The notes under the pieces: model-generated
Database searches by the model: none
The model's input: only the letters and a program-made list of their open reading frames with translations
Told to the model about the DNA's origin: nothing
Part shown: in pieces, positions 1-9,424 of the stretch
How positions within the stretch are numbered: the first letter of the stretch is position 1
How the letters are laid out: the number at the start of each line of letters is the position of its first letter
Translations under genes and position numbers: made by a program
Assembly (NCBI GenBank): GCA_043808325.1
Contig: JAZDEY010000079.1
Coordinates: 1-28,088 of the forward strand
DNA: 28,088 nucleotides
Reading direction: 5' to 3'
Source of the DNA: JAZDEY01 sp043808325 [NCBI: Candidatus Eiseniibacteriota bacterium]
Lineage (GTDB): Bacteria; Arandabacterota; Arandabacteria; Arandabacterales

Positions 1-140
1 GCACCACCCTGGTTCGCCGTGGCCTCTGCCACCAACCGCACGGCGGCCCCAAAGAACTCGCTATTCCACAGCTCGCCGCCCGCCCTGCTGCTTACACGCC
101 ACGGCCAAGCCACTTTGCCGAGTGCAAATTCACGACATAA
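1..140 (-). mobile_element. Integron cassette 5 (partial, runs off the left edge)
   Basis: The cassette begins at the R' core of the attC at 135-192 and reads leftwards out of the window. Only its first 140 bases are visible. They are a close homologue of the start of cassette 4 (490-630): both stretches are 141 bp long, and I estimate 85-90 % identity by eye. One minus-strand frame is open from a GTG at 113 to the edge and includes the residues LVAEATANQGG. I do not recognise the product and cannot see a convincing ribosome binding site. The boundary is certain if the attC call is right; the coding content is undecided. Confidence 0.6.
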
Positions 141-192
141 CGCTGTGGCTGTGCGGCGGGGTTTCCCCGCCCGAACAAGTCACTTGTTATGT
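135..192 (-). repeat. attC site of cassette 4 (short, 58 bp)
   Basis: Read on the minus strand this has R''=ACATAAC (192-186) and R'=GTTATGT (141-135), with imperfectly paired L arms and a short GGCGGGG/CCCCGCC stem. R'' is the exact complement of the R' at the start of the same cassette (630-624), as expected for a cassette that circularises. It is half the length of the two attC sites to its right. The stop codon TAA of a possible 39-residue ORF lies in R''. Confidence 0.75.
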
Positions 193-306
193 GGCACGTG
201 CGTACCACCGCCAGATCTCTACTTCAATACGGCGCGATCTCGCACGGCGCCCGAACACGCGAGTGGACAAAGAATCGTGAAGAACAACTCCGTGCCACTT
301 CATCAT
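187..306 (-). CDS. Possible 39-residue ORF ending in attC
   Basis: An ATG at 306 opens 39 codons ending in TAA at 189-187, inside the R'' core of attC. Cassette ORFs often end at this point. A GGGGG run lies upstream with about 10 bases between it and the ATG, and a weak promoter-like pair lies further upstream. The product is basic (many Arg, motif FGRRARSRRIE) and I recognise no family. It could equally be a chance frame in a gene-less cassette. Confidence 0.3.
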   Translation of the reverse strand: MMKWHGVVLHDSLSTRVFGRRARSRRIEVEIWRWYARAT

Positions 307-368
307 ACCAAGCGCCCCCAAGACGCGGCGGTGACCCACGCCACATCTCAACACACTATACTATTAGA

Positions 369-398
369 ATACTATCCATCGTGTAACCGTCTCACCAA
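369..398 (-). promoter_or_regulatory. Weak promoter candidate inside cassette 4
   Basis: On the minus strand TTGGTG (398-393) and TAGTAT (374-369) are 18 bases apart in an AT-rich patch, upstream of the possible 39-residue ORF. A second TAGTAT lies at 363-358. The match to sigma-70 consensus is only partial. Confidence 0.25.
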
Positions 399-489
399 GA
401 ACCGTAGCGACTTACTCTCGCTCACGCTCTGCACGCCCACCCACTCGGCAAAGCCCAGGCGGCCAGGGCGATCAATCTAGTGCTTTCGC

Positions 490-630
490 GCACCACCCTG
501 GTTCGCCGTGGCTTCTTCCACCAGCCTCGCGCCGGCCCCAAGAACTCGCCTATTCTATTGCTCGGGGCCCGACCTGCTACTTACACGCCACGGCCAAGCC
601 ACTTTGCCGAGTGCAAATCCCCAACATAAC
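490..630 (-). repeat. Cassette leader repeat, second copy (first copy 1-141)
   Basis: Bases 490-630 and 1-141 are homologous over exactly 141 bp, each ending at an ACATAAC core. Substitutions are scattered, and one pair of compensating single-base indels keeps the total length equal. Both end, in minus-strand sense, with codons reading EATANQGG. The two cassettes therefore share an ancestral 5' half and differ beyond it. Confidence 0.8.
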
Positions 631-733
631 GGTGTGGCTAAGCGGCGTAGCCGCAGGGTGGCGCGACGCCTGCGCCTCTGTGCTTGCAGGCGGCGTGACA
701 CTCGGCGGAGTCCGCTTGAGCCACGTGTTAGGA
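624..733 (-). repeat. attC site of cassette 3 (110 bp)
   Basis: Minus-strand R''=TCCTAAC (733-727) and R'=GTTATGT (630-624). The arms GTGGCT-C-AAGCGG and GTGGCT-AAGCGG pair with one extra C on the R'' side, which is the extrahelical base that fixes attC orientation. Apart from the R cores it differs from the attC at 1486-1595 at only five positions and has the same length. R'' is complementary to the R' that opens cassette 3 (1492-1486). Confidence 0.92.
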
Positions 734-892
734 GCGCTCCGGTTCAAGACATCTCATTCCAGCCTGCTGGTCCCCCTGTATTTCCGCGGGCGCAGTGGAT
801 CGGACCATTGTTGTTCCGCTCTGCGCACTGTGATGGTCCCTTTGGCGTCGGTGGTCTTCCGGCCAGTTAGGGAACGCAATCCACGGTGGCAC
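728..892 (-). CDS. Small cassette protein, unknown function
   Basis: A GTG at 892 opens 54 codons ending in TAA at 730-728, inside the R'' core of the cassette's attC. An AGGAGG (906-901) lies eight bases upstream, an ideal ribosome binding site, and the ORF starts only 22 bases after the stop of the membrane protein gene. The product is hydrophilic, rich in Arg, Gln and His (it opens VPPWIAFPNWPEDHRRQ), and has no membrane segment or motif that I recognise. The position suggests it is co-translated with the upstream membrane protein, for instance as a partner or an antitoxin-like regulator, but that is inference. It could also be the remnant of a longer gene truncated by attC. Confidence 0.5.
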   Translation of the reverse strand: MPPWIAFPNWPEDHRRQRDHHSAQSGTTMVRSTAPAEIQGDQQAGMRCLEPERS

Positions 893-914
893 ACGTCAAG
901 CCTCCTATTGCCGA

Positions 915-1469
915 TCAGTAATGTCGAGGATCTCGGGTTGCTCCGGCGGCCACGGCATACCAGAGTCCGGCACCAAGGCTCGCCACGGCTAACGCTGCTA
1001 GCACCAATGTGGTGATGGACGTGCGCGCCGACTCAGCGGAGCGGATAACGGCCGCGCGACACTCGAGCTTCCGGGCTGCGAGCTCCTGGTCAAGCCTCGT
1101 GATAGCGAGCTCAGCTTGTCGTCTGATGTCCTCATCTTCCGACTCGAGGTCCAGCTTGAAGCGCAGGATTGAGTGCTCAATGTCAGCAACACGATCGAAC
1201 GCAACAGCAGATTGCGTGTCCGGATGGCTCAACCAGGCTGCAGTCCCGCACGCAATAGCAACAGATATCCCAGCTGCTAGGGCGGCGAGTCGGCGGTCCC
1301 CCTTGCCGAGGTAGCGGGCTGCAAGGGTAAGTGTGAACACGGCGGCCGCACCAAGAGCGAGCACGTAATTGCCGCGGTCGAACGCGAATGCATTCCTCAA
1401 GGCCTCTCCGAGGACGAGGAGGACGACGAAGCCAGCGGCTCCAATGAAAAGCTCAATCCAGAGGTACAT
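915..1469 (-). CDS. Cassette-encoded membrane protein, unknown function
   Basis: 184 residues. Three hydrophobic segments lie near residues 6-24, 35-52 and 60-80. They are followed by a polar, charged and probably helical stretch around 85-145 (DLESEDEDIRRQAE and RLDQELAARKLE look like coiled coil), then a fourth hydrophobic segment near 150-172. I recognise no family. The ATG at 1469 lies 17 bases inside the cassette, with GAGG just upstream. The topology, with a helical soluble domain between membrane segments, could suit a sensor or a toxin-like membrane protein, but nothing in the sequence decides this. The small ORF directly downstream is probably translated from the same message. Confidence 0.75.
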   Translation of the reverse strand: MYLWIELFIGAAGFVVLLVLGEALRNAFAFDRGNYVLALGAAAVFTLTLAARYLGKGDRRLAALAAGISVAIACGTAAWLSHPDTQSAVAFDRVADIEHSILRFKLDLESEDEDIRRQAELAITRLDQELAARKLECRAAVIRSAESARTSITTLVLAALAVASLGAGLWYAVAAGATRDPRHY

Positions 1470-1485
1470 TGCTACCTCGCGCTGC

Positions 1486-1595
1486 TCCTAACGGTGTGGC
1501 TAAGCGGCGGAGCCGCAGGGTGGCACGACGCCTGCGCCTCTGTCCTTGCAGGCGGCGTGACACTCGGCGCAGTCCGCTTGAGCCACTTGTTAGAC
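1486..1595 (-). repeat. attC site of cassette 2 (110 bp)
   Basis: Minus-strand R''=GTCTAAC (1595-1589) and R'=GTTAGGA (1492-1486). The L arms GTGGCT-C-AAGCGG and GTGGCT-AAGCGG pair with an extra C on the R'' side. The interior forms a long imperfect hairpin with CGCCTGC/GCAGGCG arms. R'' is the exact complement of the R' at the start of cassette 2 (2549-2543). Confidence 0.93.
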
Positions 1596-2548
1596 CACCA
1601 TGTCCTAATGACGGGTCACTCAAAGGGTATCTTCTCCTGATTCCCCTGCTTCTTGTGCCCGCGAACCTTGAGGACCCTGTACTCTCGATTGATGAATGCA
1701 CCCAATTCAGAATCCCACACTTGGTGCAGCTCGAGATCAACGTCCAGAACGTCACCCTTGGCGAAGGCCACCTCGCGACGATCAACTGCCGCCGAGAAGC
1801 TCTCGTCGCGCATGTAGGCGCCGACGCGGTTACCGAGATAGACGAATTCCCACTTCAATTTGGGGTCGAAGCTGACCTTGACAATGGTGAGGGCAACCTG
1901 CTGTATCTCGATCCGCTCGGGCGTTTCAGCGAGGGAAGCACCTGCTGTAAGTTGACCGAACTCGTCTCGTTCCACCGTGAACAGGGGCACATCTGTGCTA
2001 CCTGTGACTTCGAATCTCGTGACCATCGGATCGGCATCCAAGGCCTGGAAAGCTTGGTCCATCTGGAGATTGACGGTCGAGTTGTTGACGTAGATAGCGA
2101 AACTTCGTTTGTCGACGGTGATCTTCGAACCTTGGGTGTTTTGGATGACAACCTTGCCAGCGGTCTCCGTGGTCTGGGCCGGCGGATCCTTCTTAAGATG
2201 TTTGCGTATGTTCAGGATGGCGCCTAGCAGGGTGATGATATCTTTGGCCCGCTGGGAGACGTCTCCGCCGAAAAGGCCACTGGCAGCCGCCCCCGCGAGG
2301 CCGAGCAGAAGGTCCACTTCGAAGCTGCCTGGTCTGGTGGCCCGGATTCTCAGCTCCATAGGTTGAGGATCGCCGATTTCGCGGTTGATCTCTTCGACAA
2401 TTGCTGCGATCGAGAGAAGGCACGGGAGGAGTGTACTCGCACTCAGATCGGCCGGCTCGCCTCCGAAACAGACCACGAACTCAGTGTCCTGCTGTCTTCC
2501 TGCCTTGATCGTCGGCTTAGGCATCAGTATCTCCTATGTGTGGTCTAA
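1492..2548 (-). mobile_element. Integron cassette 2 (302-residue protein)
   Basis: A cassette of about 1.06 kb between the attC sites at 2543-2599 and 1486-1595, carrying one minus-strand gene that fills it almost completely. The gene starts 19 bases after the R' core and stops 21 bases before the R'' core. Confidence 0.9.
1616..2524 (-). CDS. Cassette-encoded protein of unknown function (302 aa)
   Basis: 302 residues. The N-terminal part (1-65) is mixed alpha/beta and ends in a motif reading RATRPGSFEVDLLLG, followed by a Gly/Ala-rich hydrophobic stretch (about 70-90) that could insert in or lie on a membrane. Residues 125-160 carry a beta-rich segment (VVIQNTQGSKITVDKRSFAIYV), here read as separate strands, and the C-terminal third looks like a beta domain ending in a basic tail. 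The ATG at 2524 is preceded by AGGAG with six bases between. I do not recognise a named family and assign no function. The gene lies entirely within one cassette, so it was probably acquired by horizontal transfer. Confidence 0.85.
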   Translation of the reverse strand: MPKPTIKAGRQQDTEFVVCFGGEPADLSASTLLPCLLSIAAIVEEINREIGDPQPMELRIRATRPGSFEVDLLLGLAGAAASGLFGGDVSQRAKDIITLLGAILNIRKHLKKDPPAQTTETAGKVVIQNTQGSKITVDKRSFAIYVNNSTVNLQMDQAFQALDADPMVTRFEVTGSTDVPLFTVERDEFGQLTAGASLAETPERIEIQQVALTIVKVSFDPKLKWEFVYLGNRVGAYMRDESFSAAVDRREVAFAKGDVLDVDLELHQVWDSELGAFINREYRVLKVRGHKKQGNQEKIPFE

Positions 2549-2599
2549 CGGTGTGGCTGAAGGGCGGGCTTCTCCGTCCCTTCGAGCCACTTGTTGGGC
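2543..2599 (-). repeat. attC site of cassette 1 (57 bp)
   Basis: Minus-strand R''=GCCCAAC (2599-2593) and R'=GTTAGAC (2549-2543). The L arms GTGGCT-C-GAAGGG and GTGGCT-GAAGGG carry the extra C on the R'' side, as in the longer attC sites. R'' is the exact complement of GTTGGGC at 3151-3145, the candidate attI core. Confidence 0.92.
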
Positions 2600-3150
2600 A
2601 GCATTATCACCGGCCATCACTTGACAGCCCCATACGATAGAGAACCTCATGCAGGCAGAAGTCCCCTCCGACAAAACGCTCTTGTCGGCTGCCGTTCACC
2701 TGCATGCCCTTGTGCTCGTAGAAGGAATGAGCGTTCGAGTTAGAGTCTACCACCCATAGGACCAGATCCCCTGCCCCCTCCTCGCGCCCAAGTCCCACCG
2801 CGGCGGTGAACAGCGCATTGCCGATGCCCTGTCGTTGTCGCGATGAGATGACGTGGAGATTGTAGATCTCCCAGGCTCCGCTCTCTGATAGTGTATCGCG
2901 CGCTGGACCACATGCGACGTACCCTGTGAGCTCCGCCCCATCTTCGGCGACCACCACCTTGACCCCGTCTTTCAGCTGTTGTTGCCACCTCGCAGTGCGC
3001 GCCACGACGTCGAGCGAATCCAGGAAGGCCGCCGGCATCTCCCGAACATAGGTTCTCCGCCAGCTTGCGATATGGAGTTGAGCAATTCGCTCCGCGTCAT
3101 CCACGGATGCTCGTCTCAGCATTGTCGATCACCCCTCACCGTCTGCCCAA
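2549..3150 (-). mobile_element. Integron cassette 1 (GNAT acetyltransferase), first in the array
   Basis: A cassette of about 600 bp bounded by the candidate attI core at 3151-3145 and the attC at 2543-2599. It carries one gene. As the first cassette it lies closest to the integrase and directly downstream of the candidate Pc promoter, where expression should be strongest. Confidence 0.9.
2607..3122 (-). CDS. GNAT family N-acetyltransferase (cassette gene)
   Basis: 171 residues, usual for a single-domain GNAT. It probably transfers an acetyl group from acetyl-CoA to an amine. The opening LRRASVDDAERIAQLH is typical of the first strand and helix. Motif A lies at residues 86-104 (IYNLHVISSRQRQGIGNAL), with RQRQGIG as the pyrophosphate-binding loop, and SFYEHKGM near 135 is the usual C-terminal motif. 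The ATG at 3122 follows GAGGGG with nine bases between. The substrate cannot be read from the sequence; cassette-borne GNATs include aminoglycoside and toxin-modifying enzymes, but no feature here points to either. Confidence 0.93.
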   Translation of the reverse strand: MLRRASVDDAERIAQLHIASWRRTYVREMPAAFLDSLDVVARTARWQQQLKDGVKVVVAEDGAELTGYVACGPARDTLSESGAWEIYNLHVISSRQRQGIGNALFTAAVGLGREEGAGDLVLWVVDSNSNAHSFYEHKGMQVNGSRQERFVGGDFCLHEVLYRMGLSSDGR

Positions 3151-3217
3151 CTAGTGTTTATACTGATCCGTATGAACCACCTTTGGACTGCTGTCCGGTC
3201 GGTGACCCACTCACACC
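3145..3217 (-). promoter_or_regulatory. Candidate attI recombination site
   Basis: GTTGGGC on the minus strand (3151-3145) fits the GTTRRRY core, and it matches the R'' of the first cassette's attC (2599-2593) exactly as its complement. Cleavage between G and TT would place it at the head of the array. It lies about 165 bases beyond the intI stop codon, not next to the intI start as in common integrons. The integrase-binding sites upstream of the core cannot be defined by eye, so the outer limit given is approximate. Confidence 0.7.
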
Positions 3218-3246
3218 ATCGTAGCACCGGACTGTCATGATTTCAA
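3218..3246 (-). promoter_or_regulatory. Candidate cassette promoter Pc
   Basis: On the minus strand TTGAAA (3246-3241) and TACGAT (3223-3218) are separated by 17 bases. The pair lies between the intI stop and the attI core and points into the first cassette, where an inverted integron would need its Pc. A separate perfect TATAAT lies at 3286-3281 but without a good -35 box. Confidence 0.5.
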
Positions 3247-3316
3247 CAGCTTTCTGACTGTTGTATATGCCGCGGTGGGTATTATACGGTTTCCTGATAA
3301 CACCGGGCCCGCGGGG

Positions 3317-4405
3317 TTATACCGCATCCATAGGGCTCCGCACGCCCTTGCCTCCCCGGTTCAGTACATGGGTGTATACCATGGTCGTCCTTACATCCTT
3401 ATGTCCCAGAAGTTCCTGCACGGTCCTGATGTCATAGCCGCTCTCAAGCAGGTGGGTGGCAAAGCTGTGCCGAAACGTGTGGCAACTCGCTCGCTTAACA
3501 AGTCCGGCATCGCGCACCGCAATCTTGACGGCTTTCTGGACGATGGACTCGTCCATATGATACCGGCCTTGCTGGCGAGTTCTTGGATTAGTCCACCGCG
3601 TTTTCTGCGGGAAGACAAATTGCCATCTCCATTCGCACGCGGCGTAAGGGTACTTGCGAGCGAGTGCGTGGGGCAGGCTCACTCTGCCGTAACCTTCCGC
3701 CAGGTCCTTGTCTTGGATGCTCTTGACCCTTCGTAGGTGTTCGATCAGGGGCTGCCGCGCCGCTTGGGGGAGCATGGTCACTCTGTCCTTGGATCCCTTG
3801 CCGCTACACACGGTGATCTGGTTCGCGCCGAAGTCCACGTCCTGCACCCGCAGCGACACGCATTCGTTGAGCCGAAGACCGGCGCCATACATGAGACACG
3901 CCGCAAGCCACGCCTGACCATGCAGATTGCCCATGACGGCCTTGACTTCCTCCCTGGTCATCACGACGGGCAAGCGCGTGGTCTTCCGGGCACGAACCAC
4001 ATCGCCAAAGTCCCCGACCGGCCTCTTTAGAACGTGGCGATACAGGAACAGTAACGCGCTCAAGGCCTGGTTCTGGGTGGATGCGCTGATCCTGCCCTCA
4101 ATCGCAAGTCGACTGAGGAAGACGTTGATCTCCGTCTCTCCCATCTCCTTCGGGTGCTTGAGTTTGTTGAAGAAGATGAAGCGCTTGGCCCAGTTGCAGT
4201 AGGACTCCTCTGTCCTGCGGCTGTAGTGCCGCGAGCGCATAGCCTGCCGCATCTGGTCCAGCAGCCTGGGCGGCGGACCGAACGGACCCCTCCGGACTTC
4301 ACCCCTGGGAATCTCGCTCGGAGGTAAGCCTGACGGGGCTCCTGCTCCGCCATGAGGCATATTGCCTGGAGAATCCTGCCGCACCTCACCGGTTGGTTTC
4401 GGCAT
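3317..4405 (-). CDS. intI: Integron integrase (tyrosine recombinase)
   Basis: Inserts and excises gene cassettes by recombining attI and folded single-stranded attC. Counting from the ATG at 4405 (362 aa), the SAM-like N domain starts at [11 protein letters not shown] followed by [11 protein letters not shown]. Catalytic residues are R178 (GAGLRLNE), K203 (SGKGSKDR), H309 and R312 (HTFRHS), H335 (LLGHKD) and nucleophile Y344. The IntI-specific insertion (about 247-265, ALARKYPY then EWRWQFVFP) separates it from XerC/D. The frame is open to an ATG at 4537, but the likely promoter puts transcription start near 4537, so I prefer 4405; an ATG at 4360 is also possible. The gene has the same orientation as the cassettes, which lie beyond its 3' end. 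Confidence 0.95.
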
Positions 4406-4543
4406 CGATGGTTCCACAACCCCACCCCCTTTCCACGTACTAACCCAATGCCCCGTGCCAGGCCGACAGCATATATCAGCACACTGGCACCTTGGTTCCC
4501 CAGGGGGGTGCAACGCCAGCCATCTTGCAGCTTCCAAGGCTTA

Positions 4544-4572
4544 AGAGTAGAACTGTGATTGCCCTTTGTCAA
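4544..4572 (-). promoter_or_regulatory. Likely intI promoter
   Basis: A perfect -35 TTGACA (4572-4567) and a weak -10 TACTCT (4549-4544) are 17 bases apart on the minus strand. Transcription would start near 4537. I see no CTGT-N8-ACAG type LexA box over it, so SOS control of the type known for many intI genes is not evident. Confidence 0.55.
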
Positions 4573-8326: not shown

Positions 8327-8377
8327 GTACTCTGGAAGTTGGCAGCCCAGCCCTTGGGCCAAGAGGAGGCGAGTAGA

Positions 8378-9424
8378 ATGAAGCAGTTCGTACTTGTGGG
8401 ATTCGCAGTGGCGCTCGCGGCGATCCTCATTGCCGGTTGCGGCATGTTCGATTCGAACGAGAACCCGATCGACGAGGGGGATAACCTCGCGGCATACGGG
8501 GGCTACACCACGGCCAATGAAGCTCCGGGATTCGGCGACCCCGGCCTGATGGCGCGCCATCCCGAGGACGACCCCTACGACGATGAGGTGTCAAACTACC
8601 CCGAGGTATCGAATGCCCGGCGAGGCGGCGGAGCCAAGATCTATATGCTGCGGATGATCTGGGGTAATATCGATAACCCCGACACCAACGAGAACGTCGG
8701 GGACTGCCCCGTCACCGATTGGTCAGGCTCGATCAAGACCGATGGCGGCGTTCTCATCATACGGCGGCTTATAAGATTTGAGCCCGACGACTACATTGTG
8801 CGGCCGCGCCGTGGTGCGCACCAGGCCGCGTGGGTATCGCACACGCACAACCACGTCGACGGCATACTTTTCGAGATCATCGATGTTCCCGATCCGCGGC
8901 ACAAAGAAGTCAAGAATTCACTGACGATCACGACCCCACTATACAGCGCGGAGATCCCGTTTGACAGCCTCGGTGACCTCAATCAGATCCTGACCTATGA
9001 CGATTGTAATAAGATTTCGCTGGTCGGGACCGAGATCAAGCTGATCCGATGCCCCCGGGGATTCCTGGAAGGCACATGGGTGAGCGAGACCGACACCTCG
9101 GGCAACTTCGAGGGAGCGTGGATCAGGGACGATGGCAATTTGAGCGGTTATCTCCACGGTCGTTATGGCGTCCGTGACGAGGAGCGGGTGCTGGTCGGAA
9201 AGTGGATAACCACATCCGGCGAATTCGGCGGCCTCCTCAAGGGAACTTGGGGCCCCATGATCGATGAGAACGAAGATGATGAGGACGGCCCCGACGGCTA
9301 CTTCGAGGGCACGTGGGTCAACGAGGCCTTGACGGCGGTGGGCCGCTTCAGAGGGCACTACTGCTTCCCGGACACCTCGGCCAATGGCGTATTCCGGGGT
9401 AGATGGGATAGGGACTGCAGGTGA
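8378..9424 (+). CDS. Lipoprotein with C-terminal Gly/Trp repeats, unknown function
   Basis: 348 residues. The ATG at 8378 is chosen because GAGGAGG lies eight bases upstream and it begins a clear lipoprotein signal: a hydrophobic stretch at 4-18 and lipobox IAGC with acylated C21. An acidic, Asp/Asn-rich linker follows (about 25-75). The middle domain (about 85-225) includes WSGSIKTDGG and VDGILFEI and looks beta-rich. The last 120 residues contain about eight short units of the form F/L-x-G-x-W/Y (FLEGTWV, FEGAWI, YLHGRY, LVGKWI, LLKGTW, YFEGTWV, FRGHY, FRGRWD), which probably stack as a beta repeat. It is probably exposed in the periplasm or at the outer membrane. It is the only plus-strand gene here. 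No enzyme motif is seen. Confidence 0.88.
   Translation: MKQFVLVGFAVALAAILIAGCGMFDSNENPIDEGDNLAAYGGYTTANEAPGFGDPGLMARHPEDDPYDDEVSNYPEVSNARRGGGAKIYMLRMIWGNIDNPDTNENVGDCPVTDWSGSIKTDGGVLIIRRLIRFEPDDYIVRPRRGAHQAAWVSHTHNHVDGILFEIIDVPDPRHKEVKNSLTITTPLYSAEIPFDSLGDLNQILTYDDCNKISLVGTEIKLIRCPRGFLEGTWVSETDTSGNFEGAWIRDDGNLSGYLHGRYGVRDEERVLVGKWITTSGEFGGLLKGTWGPMIDENEDDEDGPDGYFEGTWVNEALTAVGRFRGHYCFPDTSANGVFRGRWDRDCR

What the first reader, a model, noticed from the sequence alone, without database searches (positions are those of the whole stretch)
1..4572. Chromosomal integron with inverted layout: intI in the same direction as its cassettes
The intI gene and the cassette genes are all on the minus strand, and the cassettes lie beyond the 3' end of intI. 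The extrahelical C in three attC sites sits on the side that gives the same minus-strand orientation, so attC polarity agrees with gene polarity. In the well-known class 1-3 and Vibrio integrons intI is divergent from the array and attI lies at its 5' end. The inverted arrangement is known from Treponema denticola and a few other lineages. The rest of the window shows a chromosomal setting, beside a full ribosomal cluster, with no transposase, plasmid or resistance gene.
Basis: partly seen in the sequence, partly recalled or inferred. Interest (0 to 1): 0.78.

Follow-up and report, generated by a model that had tools for sequence, protein, structure and literature searches.

The report
Inverted chromosomal integron with four attC
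This is a gene-capturing element (an integron) whose integrase gene points the same way as its captured genes instead of away from them; it belongs to an already described "inverted" group, which here turns out to be spread over several little-studied bacterial phyla.

Summary
An intact integron integrase gene (3317 to about 4405, minus) is followed on its 3' side by an attI-like site and an array with four attC sites (not three) of the same polarity. Each complete cassette's first bases complement the R'' of its own attC (4 of 4), which puts attI at 3145-3151, 165 bp after the intI stop. No attC was found in the 23.8 kb on the 5' side.

The layout is not a one-off. Of 137 integrases in a tree, 115 had a layout call; 49 of the 52 inverted ones, window included, fall in one 71-row group without a standard-layout member. 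The group holds Planctomycetota, the phylum of a Rokubacteria genome (16 inverted, 0 standard, 15 undetermined) and parts of two more phyla. The literature already knows an "inverted integrase group", so this is a new member of a known kind.

New details: the phylum spread, a semi-conserved attI behind intI, a separate inverted pair on phage-like contigs, and a candidate anti-phage gene as a cassette. Recombination and cassette transcription were not shown. The host is placed, by SecY alone, as a deep FCB-group lineage.

The parts
3317..4405 (-). intI, integron integrase (tyrosine recombinase); start codon unsure: the open frame runs to 4537 (TTG), the first in-frame ATG is at 4405
   Evidence: TIGR02249 457 bits over residues 92-405 of the 406-aa frame; 2a3v E 9.4e-87; frame
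3145..3316 (-). attI region between intI stop and first cassette; core GTTGGGC at 3145-3151, exchange expected between G 3151 and T 3150
   Evidence: core predicted from R'' of the first attC and found 7/7, 165 nt after the stop; the 40 nt before the core are conserved in 13 sequences, window included: sum IC 17.5 vs random anchors mean 2.7, max 6.4
2549..3150 (-). cassette 1 (602 bp), GNAT acetyltransferase ORF 2607-3122 (171 aa)
   Evidence: boundaries from attC/attI junctions; Pfam Acetyltransf_1 4.8e-14
2543..2599 (-). attC of cassette 1 (57 bp)
   Evidence: score 22.7, extra base on left arm
1492..2548 (-). cassette 2 (1057 bp), ORF 1616-2524 (302 aa), family PDC-S42 (PADLOC candidate defence) / NCBIfam LAPAL
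   Evidence: PADLOC PDC-S42 5.4e-31; NF053583 4.7e-51; PHROG 3243, unknown function, 7.6e-35; no Pfam match
1486..1595 (-). attC of cassette 2 (110 bp)
   Evidence: score 23.2
630..1491 (-). cassette 3 (862 bp), ORF 915-1469 (184 aa), no family found
   Evidence: no NCBIfam, Pfam or PADLOC match, only weak PHROG matches (best E 0.097)
624..733 (-). attC of cassette 3 (110 bp), 95% identical to the attC of cassette 2 over 105 nt
   Evidence: score 19.9; repeat D2
141..629 (-). cassette 4 (489 bp), no minus-strand ORF of 60 aa or more
   Evidence: ORF list; junctions
135..192 (-). attC of cassette 4 (58 bp)
   Evidence: score 19.9
1..140 (-). start of cassette 5, cut by the window edge; resembles the start of cassette 4
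   Evidence: repeat D1, 158 nt, 84%

Best explanation
A sedentary chromosomal integron of the inverted (reverse) group. Shown from sequence: an intact IntI frame; an attI-like site 165 bp downstream of its stop; four attC sites of one polarity, so cassettes point the same way as intI; and a layout shared with the integrase's relatives. Inferred from what is known of integrons: IntI pairs folded single-stranded attC (the strand written as + here) with double-stranded attI, cuts at G^TT, and inserts the newest cassette directly behind intI, so cassette 1 (acetyltransferase) is the latest arrival. Inferred and weakly supported: cassettes are transcribed in the intI direction, by a promoter in the attI region or by read-through from intI, since no terminator was seen between them.
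For: intI and conserved catalytic residues. Four attC of one polarity, none found on the 5' side. Four of four cassette junctions self-complementary. attI core predicted and found 7/7 in 37 of 51 inverted loci, against 4.5% when targets are swapped between loci (2418 swaps). The 40 nt before the core are conserved in 13 sequences of the window's subgroup, window included. 49 of 52 inverted integrases share one group with 0 of 63 standard ones. In 28 Rokubacteria-phylum intI contigs the contig end is nearer on the 3' side in 24 (p 0.00018; medians 1.55 kb and 12.9 kb), as expected if variable arrays break assemblies there (these are the 28 of 51 places whose contig length I fetched; no standard-layout control was run).
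Against: The attC scan is mine, not IntegronFinder. Of 207 non-redundant relatives 93 gave no clear layout (92 undetermined, one with both), and 20 of 289 sites of 17 or more lie in orientations that fit neither layout. In 14 of 51 inverted loci the attI prediction failed 7/7; at 6 of 7 or better it is uninformative (44 of 51 against 48% of swaps). In the careful tree of 63 rows the 29 core inverted rows were not recovered as one clade, although one clade is not rejected (p-AU 0.44); in the 137-row tree the support of 94 is below the 95 mark. The promoter-like site in attI is no better than chance (1 found, 0.6 expected in the scanned stretch). No activity was shown.
Confidence: 0.92

Rival explanations
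1. An ordinary integron in which intI alone was flipped recently, by a local inversion or an assembly error.
For: The platform differs from class 1-3 and Vibrio integrons only in intI direction (the standard layout is recalled and seen in 63 relatives).
Against: The same layout recurs in independent assemblies: 51 other loci were called inverted, and 48 of them share the window's group; the attI core lies at a similar place (median 166 nt after the stop over 37 exact matches, window 165).
Confidence: 0.02
2. A lone intI beside an unrelated cluster of attC sites (CALIN), with the true attI elsewhere.
For: No experiment shows that this IntI uses these sites; most archaeal integrons of PMC9668308 were CALINs (passage).
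Against: The attI core predicted from the first attC lies 165 nt behind the stop and its flank is conserved with relatives; no attC on the 5' side in 23.8 kb.
Confidence: 0.04
3. A decaying, inactive integron.
For: The start codon of intI is unclear; cassette 4 has no recognised gene.
Against: Open frame with catalytic residues kept; self-complementary junctions 4 of 4 and intact L arms.
Confidence: 0.12

Closest known systems
Reverse integron of Treponema denticola and other Treponema (PMC3607928, PMC7691350, PMC6557892; passages seen)
   [quoted passage not shown] chromosomal; attI between intI and the first cassette
   Different: Different host lineage. No Treponema IntI was in the tree, so common membership of one group was not tested here.
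Inverted integrase group (PMC10500605; sub-clade within the soil/freshwater clade in PMC8352920; passages seen)
   Same: Layout, and clustering of the integrases in one group
   Different: Members found here include the phylum of a Rokubacteria genome, which is not among the 14 phyla listed in PMC8618304 (passage)
Blastopirellula marina and Chlorobium phaeobacteroides reverse integrons (named in PMC6557892, passage)
   Same: Layout; the closest planctomycete integrases found here are 60-64% identical to the window's
   Different: Those two species were not retrieved; other planctomycete integrases are 43-58% identical
Archaeal integrons (PMC9668308, passages)
   Same: attI described as immediately downstream of intI
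   Different: Archaeal hosts; not compared by sequence here
Class 1 integron (IntI1)
   Same: IntI1 51% identical to the window's IntI
   Different: intI divergent from the array (from the literature, recalled)

Membership tests
integron | IntI integrase of the integron family | tested here: met
   TIGR02249 457 bits, cut-off 265
integron | attC sites with R/L boxes and extrahelical base, one polarity | tested here: met
   four sites, scores 19.9-23.2; shuffled DNA 0 of 16 or more in 227.6 kb
integron | attI next to intI | tested here: met
   core at 3145-3151, conserved flank; place inferred, not shown by recombination
integron | IntI-mediated attI x attC recombination | not testable with these tools
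   needs an assay
inverted (reverse) integron group | intI transcribed in the direction of the cassettes | tested here: met
inverted (reverse) integron group | IntI in the group of inverted integrases | tested here: met
   71-row group, 49 inverted, 22 undetermined, 0 standard, SH-aLRT 94; one clade neither recovered nor rejected in a second, thinned tree
inverted (reverse) integron group | same group as Treponema IntI | not tested
   no Treponema sequence was retrieved
mobile integron (class 1-5) | on a plasmid or transposon with resistance cassettes | tested here: not met
   beside TrpB-like, NapH-like, glcD/glcF-like genes and ribosomal genes (read); no transposase or named resistance family over its cut-off among the ten proteins scanned
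SOS-regulated integron | E. coli-type LexA box before intI | tested here: not met
   CTGT-N8-ACAG within 1 mismatch: 3 in the window, none near intI, 7.1 expected
SOS-regulated integron | GAAC-N4-GTTC type LexA box before intI | tested here: inconclusive
   10 in the window, 10.2 expected; one 1-mismatch match at 4487-4498, ahead of the ATG at 4405

The most novel reading that the evidence does not exclude
The inverted group is a separately evolving integron lineage in which integrase and cassettes form one transcription unit: whatever switches on intI also switches on the newest cassette, so capture and expression are coupled, unlike in standard integrons where the two are transcribed apart. 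This lineage has moved among at least four phyla (as far as the genome bins can be trusted) and is the only form seen where layout could be called in the Rokubacteria phylum (16 of 16).
Probability: 0.25. Interest if true: 0.6.

Novelty: new member of a known kind. Interest (0 to 1): 0.4.

Why it matters
Inverted integrons are usually told as an oddity of Treponema and a few others. Here the layout follows the integrase family tree across Planctomycetota, a Rokubacteria phylum, and parts of the phyla of an Acidobacteria and an Ignavibacteriales genome, many of them known only from metagenome bins. That makes two questions testable: where cassettes are inserted and how they are expressed when intI reads into the array; and whether one flip, long ago, founded the group. 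Integrons in these hosts are also a little-sampled cassette store; one cassette here belongs to a candidate anti-phage family.

Tried and rejected
Rfam search of the window: no match. attC scan: the spacer filter was wrong; the version gave the right sites but was insensitive on relatives; a looser one was noisy; the version is used for scores, and layout counts come only. Host placement by nearest SecY (Rokubacteria phylum, 65%) was dropped after the SecY tree joined the window to Gemmatimonadaceae, Calditrichia and Ignavibacteriales rows (95/91). Residues that tell inverted from standard IntI (at least 85% against at most 25%): none. Behind intI, terminator-like sites in 1 of 44 inverted and 6 of 63 standard loci, shuffled 1.3 and 3.9; promoter-like sites forward/reverse/shuffled 7/0/3.7 in inverted and 7/2/7.4 in standard loci: no firm signal. 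Promoter in cassettes 4-5: none. PDC-S42 in papers: 0. Cassette-2 protein in phage records: one weak match, 23%.

Rows dropped: L082 (called inverted on one marginal site, 17.1) was left out and of the core; the phage-contig pair L002/L003 out of the core (57, 83) and; viral L005 and L012 (standard, long branches) out. In one search, sites nearer than 60 nt to the stop and L027 (near copy of L026) were left out, and L256, though in the window's subgroup, stood in the other set.
Full report
What is there. Reading the minus strand, the order is intI (stop ends at 3317), a 165-bp gap, then cassettes. The intI frame gives TIGR02249 at 457 bits and its best solved relative is 2a3v, named IntI4 there (that it is the V. 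cholerae integrase is recalled). Cassette 1 holds a GNAT acetyltransferase; cassette 2 a 302-aa protein of the NCBIfam LAPAL family, which PADLOC models as PDC-S42 (5.4e-31) and PHROGs as family 3243 of unknown function (that PDC stands for a phage-defence candidate is recalled); cassette 3 a 184-aa protein without a family; cassette 4 has no minus-strand frame of 60 aa or more; cassette 5 is cut by the window. On the other side of intI lie 4Fe-4S, TrpB-like and glcF/glcD-like genes and the ribosomal cluster, read from translations.

attC polarity. The four sites carry the extra base on the 5' arm of the minus strand. A scan that allows up to two such bases scores them 19.9-23.2, where block-shuffled DNA gave none of 16 or more in 227.6 kb. 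None of 15 or more lies upstream of intI in 23.8 kb. As a control of polarity, the same scan on 207 non-redundant relatives (within 8 kb of intI) found 169 sites of 17 or more in the standard arrangement (5' side, opposite strand), 100 in the inverted one (3' side, same strand), and 14 and 6 in the two arrangements that fit neither.

Junctions and attI. In a free circular cassette the first bases after the cut pair with R'' of the same cassette's attC. All four complete cassettes obey this over 7 of 7 bases (read), which places attI at GTTGGGC, 3145-3151. With the same rule on 51 inverted loci (window included) the predicted 7-mer was found within 600 bases behind the intI stop in 37, against 4.5% of 2418 swapped pairs; at 6 of 7 or better, 44 of 51 against 48% of swaps, so only the exact matches inform. 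Their median distance is 166 nt. In 13 sequences of the window's subgroup, some of them near copies, the 40 nt before the core hold 17.5 bits against at most 6.4 for 200 random anchorings; in 19 other inverted loci 6.1 against at most 4.2.

Spread. TIGR02249 was found in 69 of 392 genomes of the phylum of Botrimarina (Planctomycetota; E at most 1e-70), 33 of 95 of the phylum of a Rokubacteria genome (1e-70; 32 over the family cut-off), 71 of 247 of the phylum of a genome titled Acidobacteria (1e-90) and 70 of 247 of the phylum of an Ignavibacteriales genome (1e-90). Layout calls (inverted / standard / undetermined): Rokubacteria phylum 16/0/15, Planctomycetota 12/6/9, Acidobacteria phylum 6/11/13, Ignavibacteriales phylum 6/11/12, the 80 loci of named genomes 9/32/36 plus one with both (after removal of repeats and short matches), viral contigs 2/2/7, one plasmid 0/1/0. 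Per phylum search only the 30 best-scoring genomes' loci, plus three further Rokubacteria-phylum places, were taken, so these are not unbiased rates.

Tree. In a quick tree of 137 integrases (52 inverted, 63 standard, 22 undetermined; undetermined ones only where close to the window or of the Rokubacteria phylum), inverted and standard labels need 3 changes with undetermined rows not counted; the standard rows as a group need 3 against a shuffled mean of 45.3, 0 of 500 as low. 49 inverted and 22 undetermined rows form one group without any standard row, SH-aLRT 94. The window sits in a 29-row subgroup (18 inverted, 11 undetermined, support 99) with integrases from all four phyla searched, which suggests transfer between phyla unless bins are wrong. 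The three inverted rows outside are L082 (one marginal site) and the phage-like pair L002 and L003. In a careful tree of 63 thinned rows (31 inverted, 32 standard) the labels need 3 changes, starred branches force at least 2; the 29 core rows are not exactly one clade there, but one clade is not rejected (p-AU 0.44). The tree is unrooted, so direction of change is not known.

Host. SecY is nearest by identity to the Rokubacteria phylum (65%, best of 90 matched genomes of 95), but a careful SecY tree of 31 rows joins the window to Gemmatimonadaceae, Calditrichia and Ignavibacteriales-phylum rows with 95/91, several of them long-branched. I read it as a deep FCB-group lineage (group name recalled); one gene, so tentative. 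L050, titled Acidobacteria, has an integrase inside the Rokubacteria-phylum cluster and may be a misbinned contig.

Literature. [quoted passage not shown] Inverted IntIs are a sub-clade within the soil/freshwater clade (PMC8352920, passages) or one of three groups (PMC10500605, passages). So the kind is known. A search for integron + Rokubacteria + cassette gave 0 papers; none of the 14 papers of a second search, with Methylomirabil as one of six terms, holds that word; and the 14-phylum list in PMC8618304 (passage) does not name the phylum. The library is partial; subscription papers are missing. Integrons on phages are known as such (PMC9892861, passages).

Mechanism. Capture by IntI at the site behind intI is inferred from anatomy and from what is known of integrons. 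Expression is open: neither terminators nor promoters between intI and the first cassette stand out from chance in the window or over 44 inverted loci, although promoter-like sites there point forward in 7 and backward in 0 (3.7 in shuffles).

Noticed in passing
L002:5001-7700 and L003:5001-8600 (viral contigs): Inverted integrons with four and five attC sites of 17 or more (L003 six of 15 or more) on contigs with phage-like replication genes and a methyltransferase gene in each array; their integrases lie far from the main inverted group, so this looks like an independent flip.
   Followed up: partly
window 1616-2524, minus: Cassette protein matching PADLOC candidate defence family PDC-S42 and NCBIfam 'LAPAL putative phage structural protein': two conflicting labels for one family.
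   Followed up: partly
window 1-158 and 490-647: 84% repeat of 158 nt covering the starts of cassettes 5 and 4 and the adjoining end of the attC before each; the complete one (cassette 4) has no minus-strand gene of 60 aa or more: a gene-less cassette.
   Followed up: partly
L050: Contig titled Acidobacteria whose integrase lies inside the Rokubacteria-phylum cluster; possible misbinning.
   Followed up: no
L026, about 2060-2640: Two strong attC sites (25.3, 23.8) 5.9 and 5.4 kb upstream of intI, on the intI strand, in a Pirellula contig that also has one in the inverted place: the upstream two fit neither layout.
   Followed up: no
window 8339-9424, plus: Lipoprotein-like 361-aa protein with repeated G/F/W-rich stretches (seen by eye), no family in Pfam or NCBIfam.
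   Followed up: no
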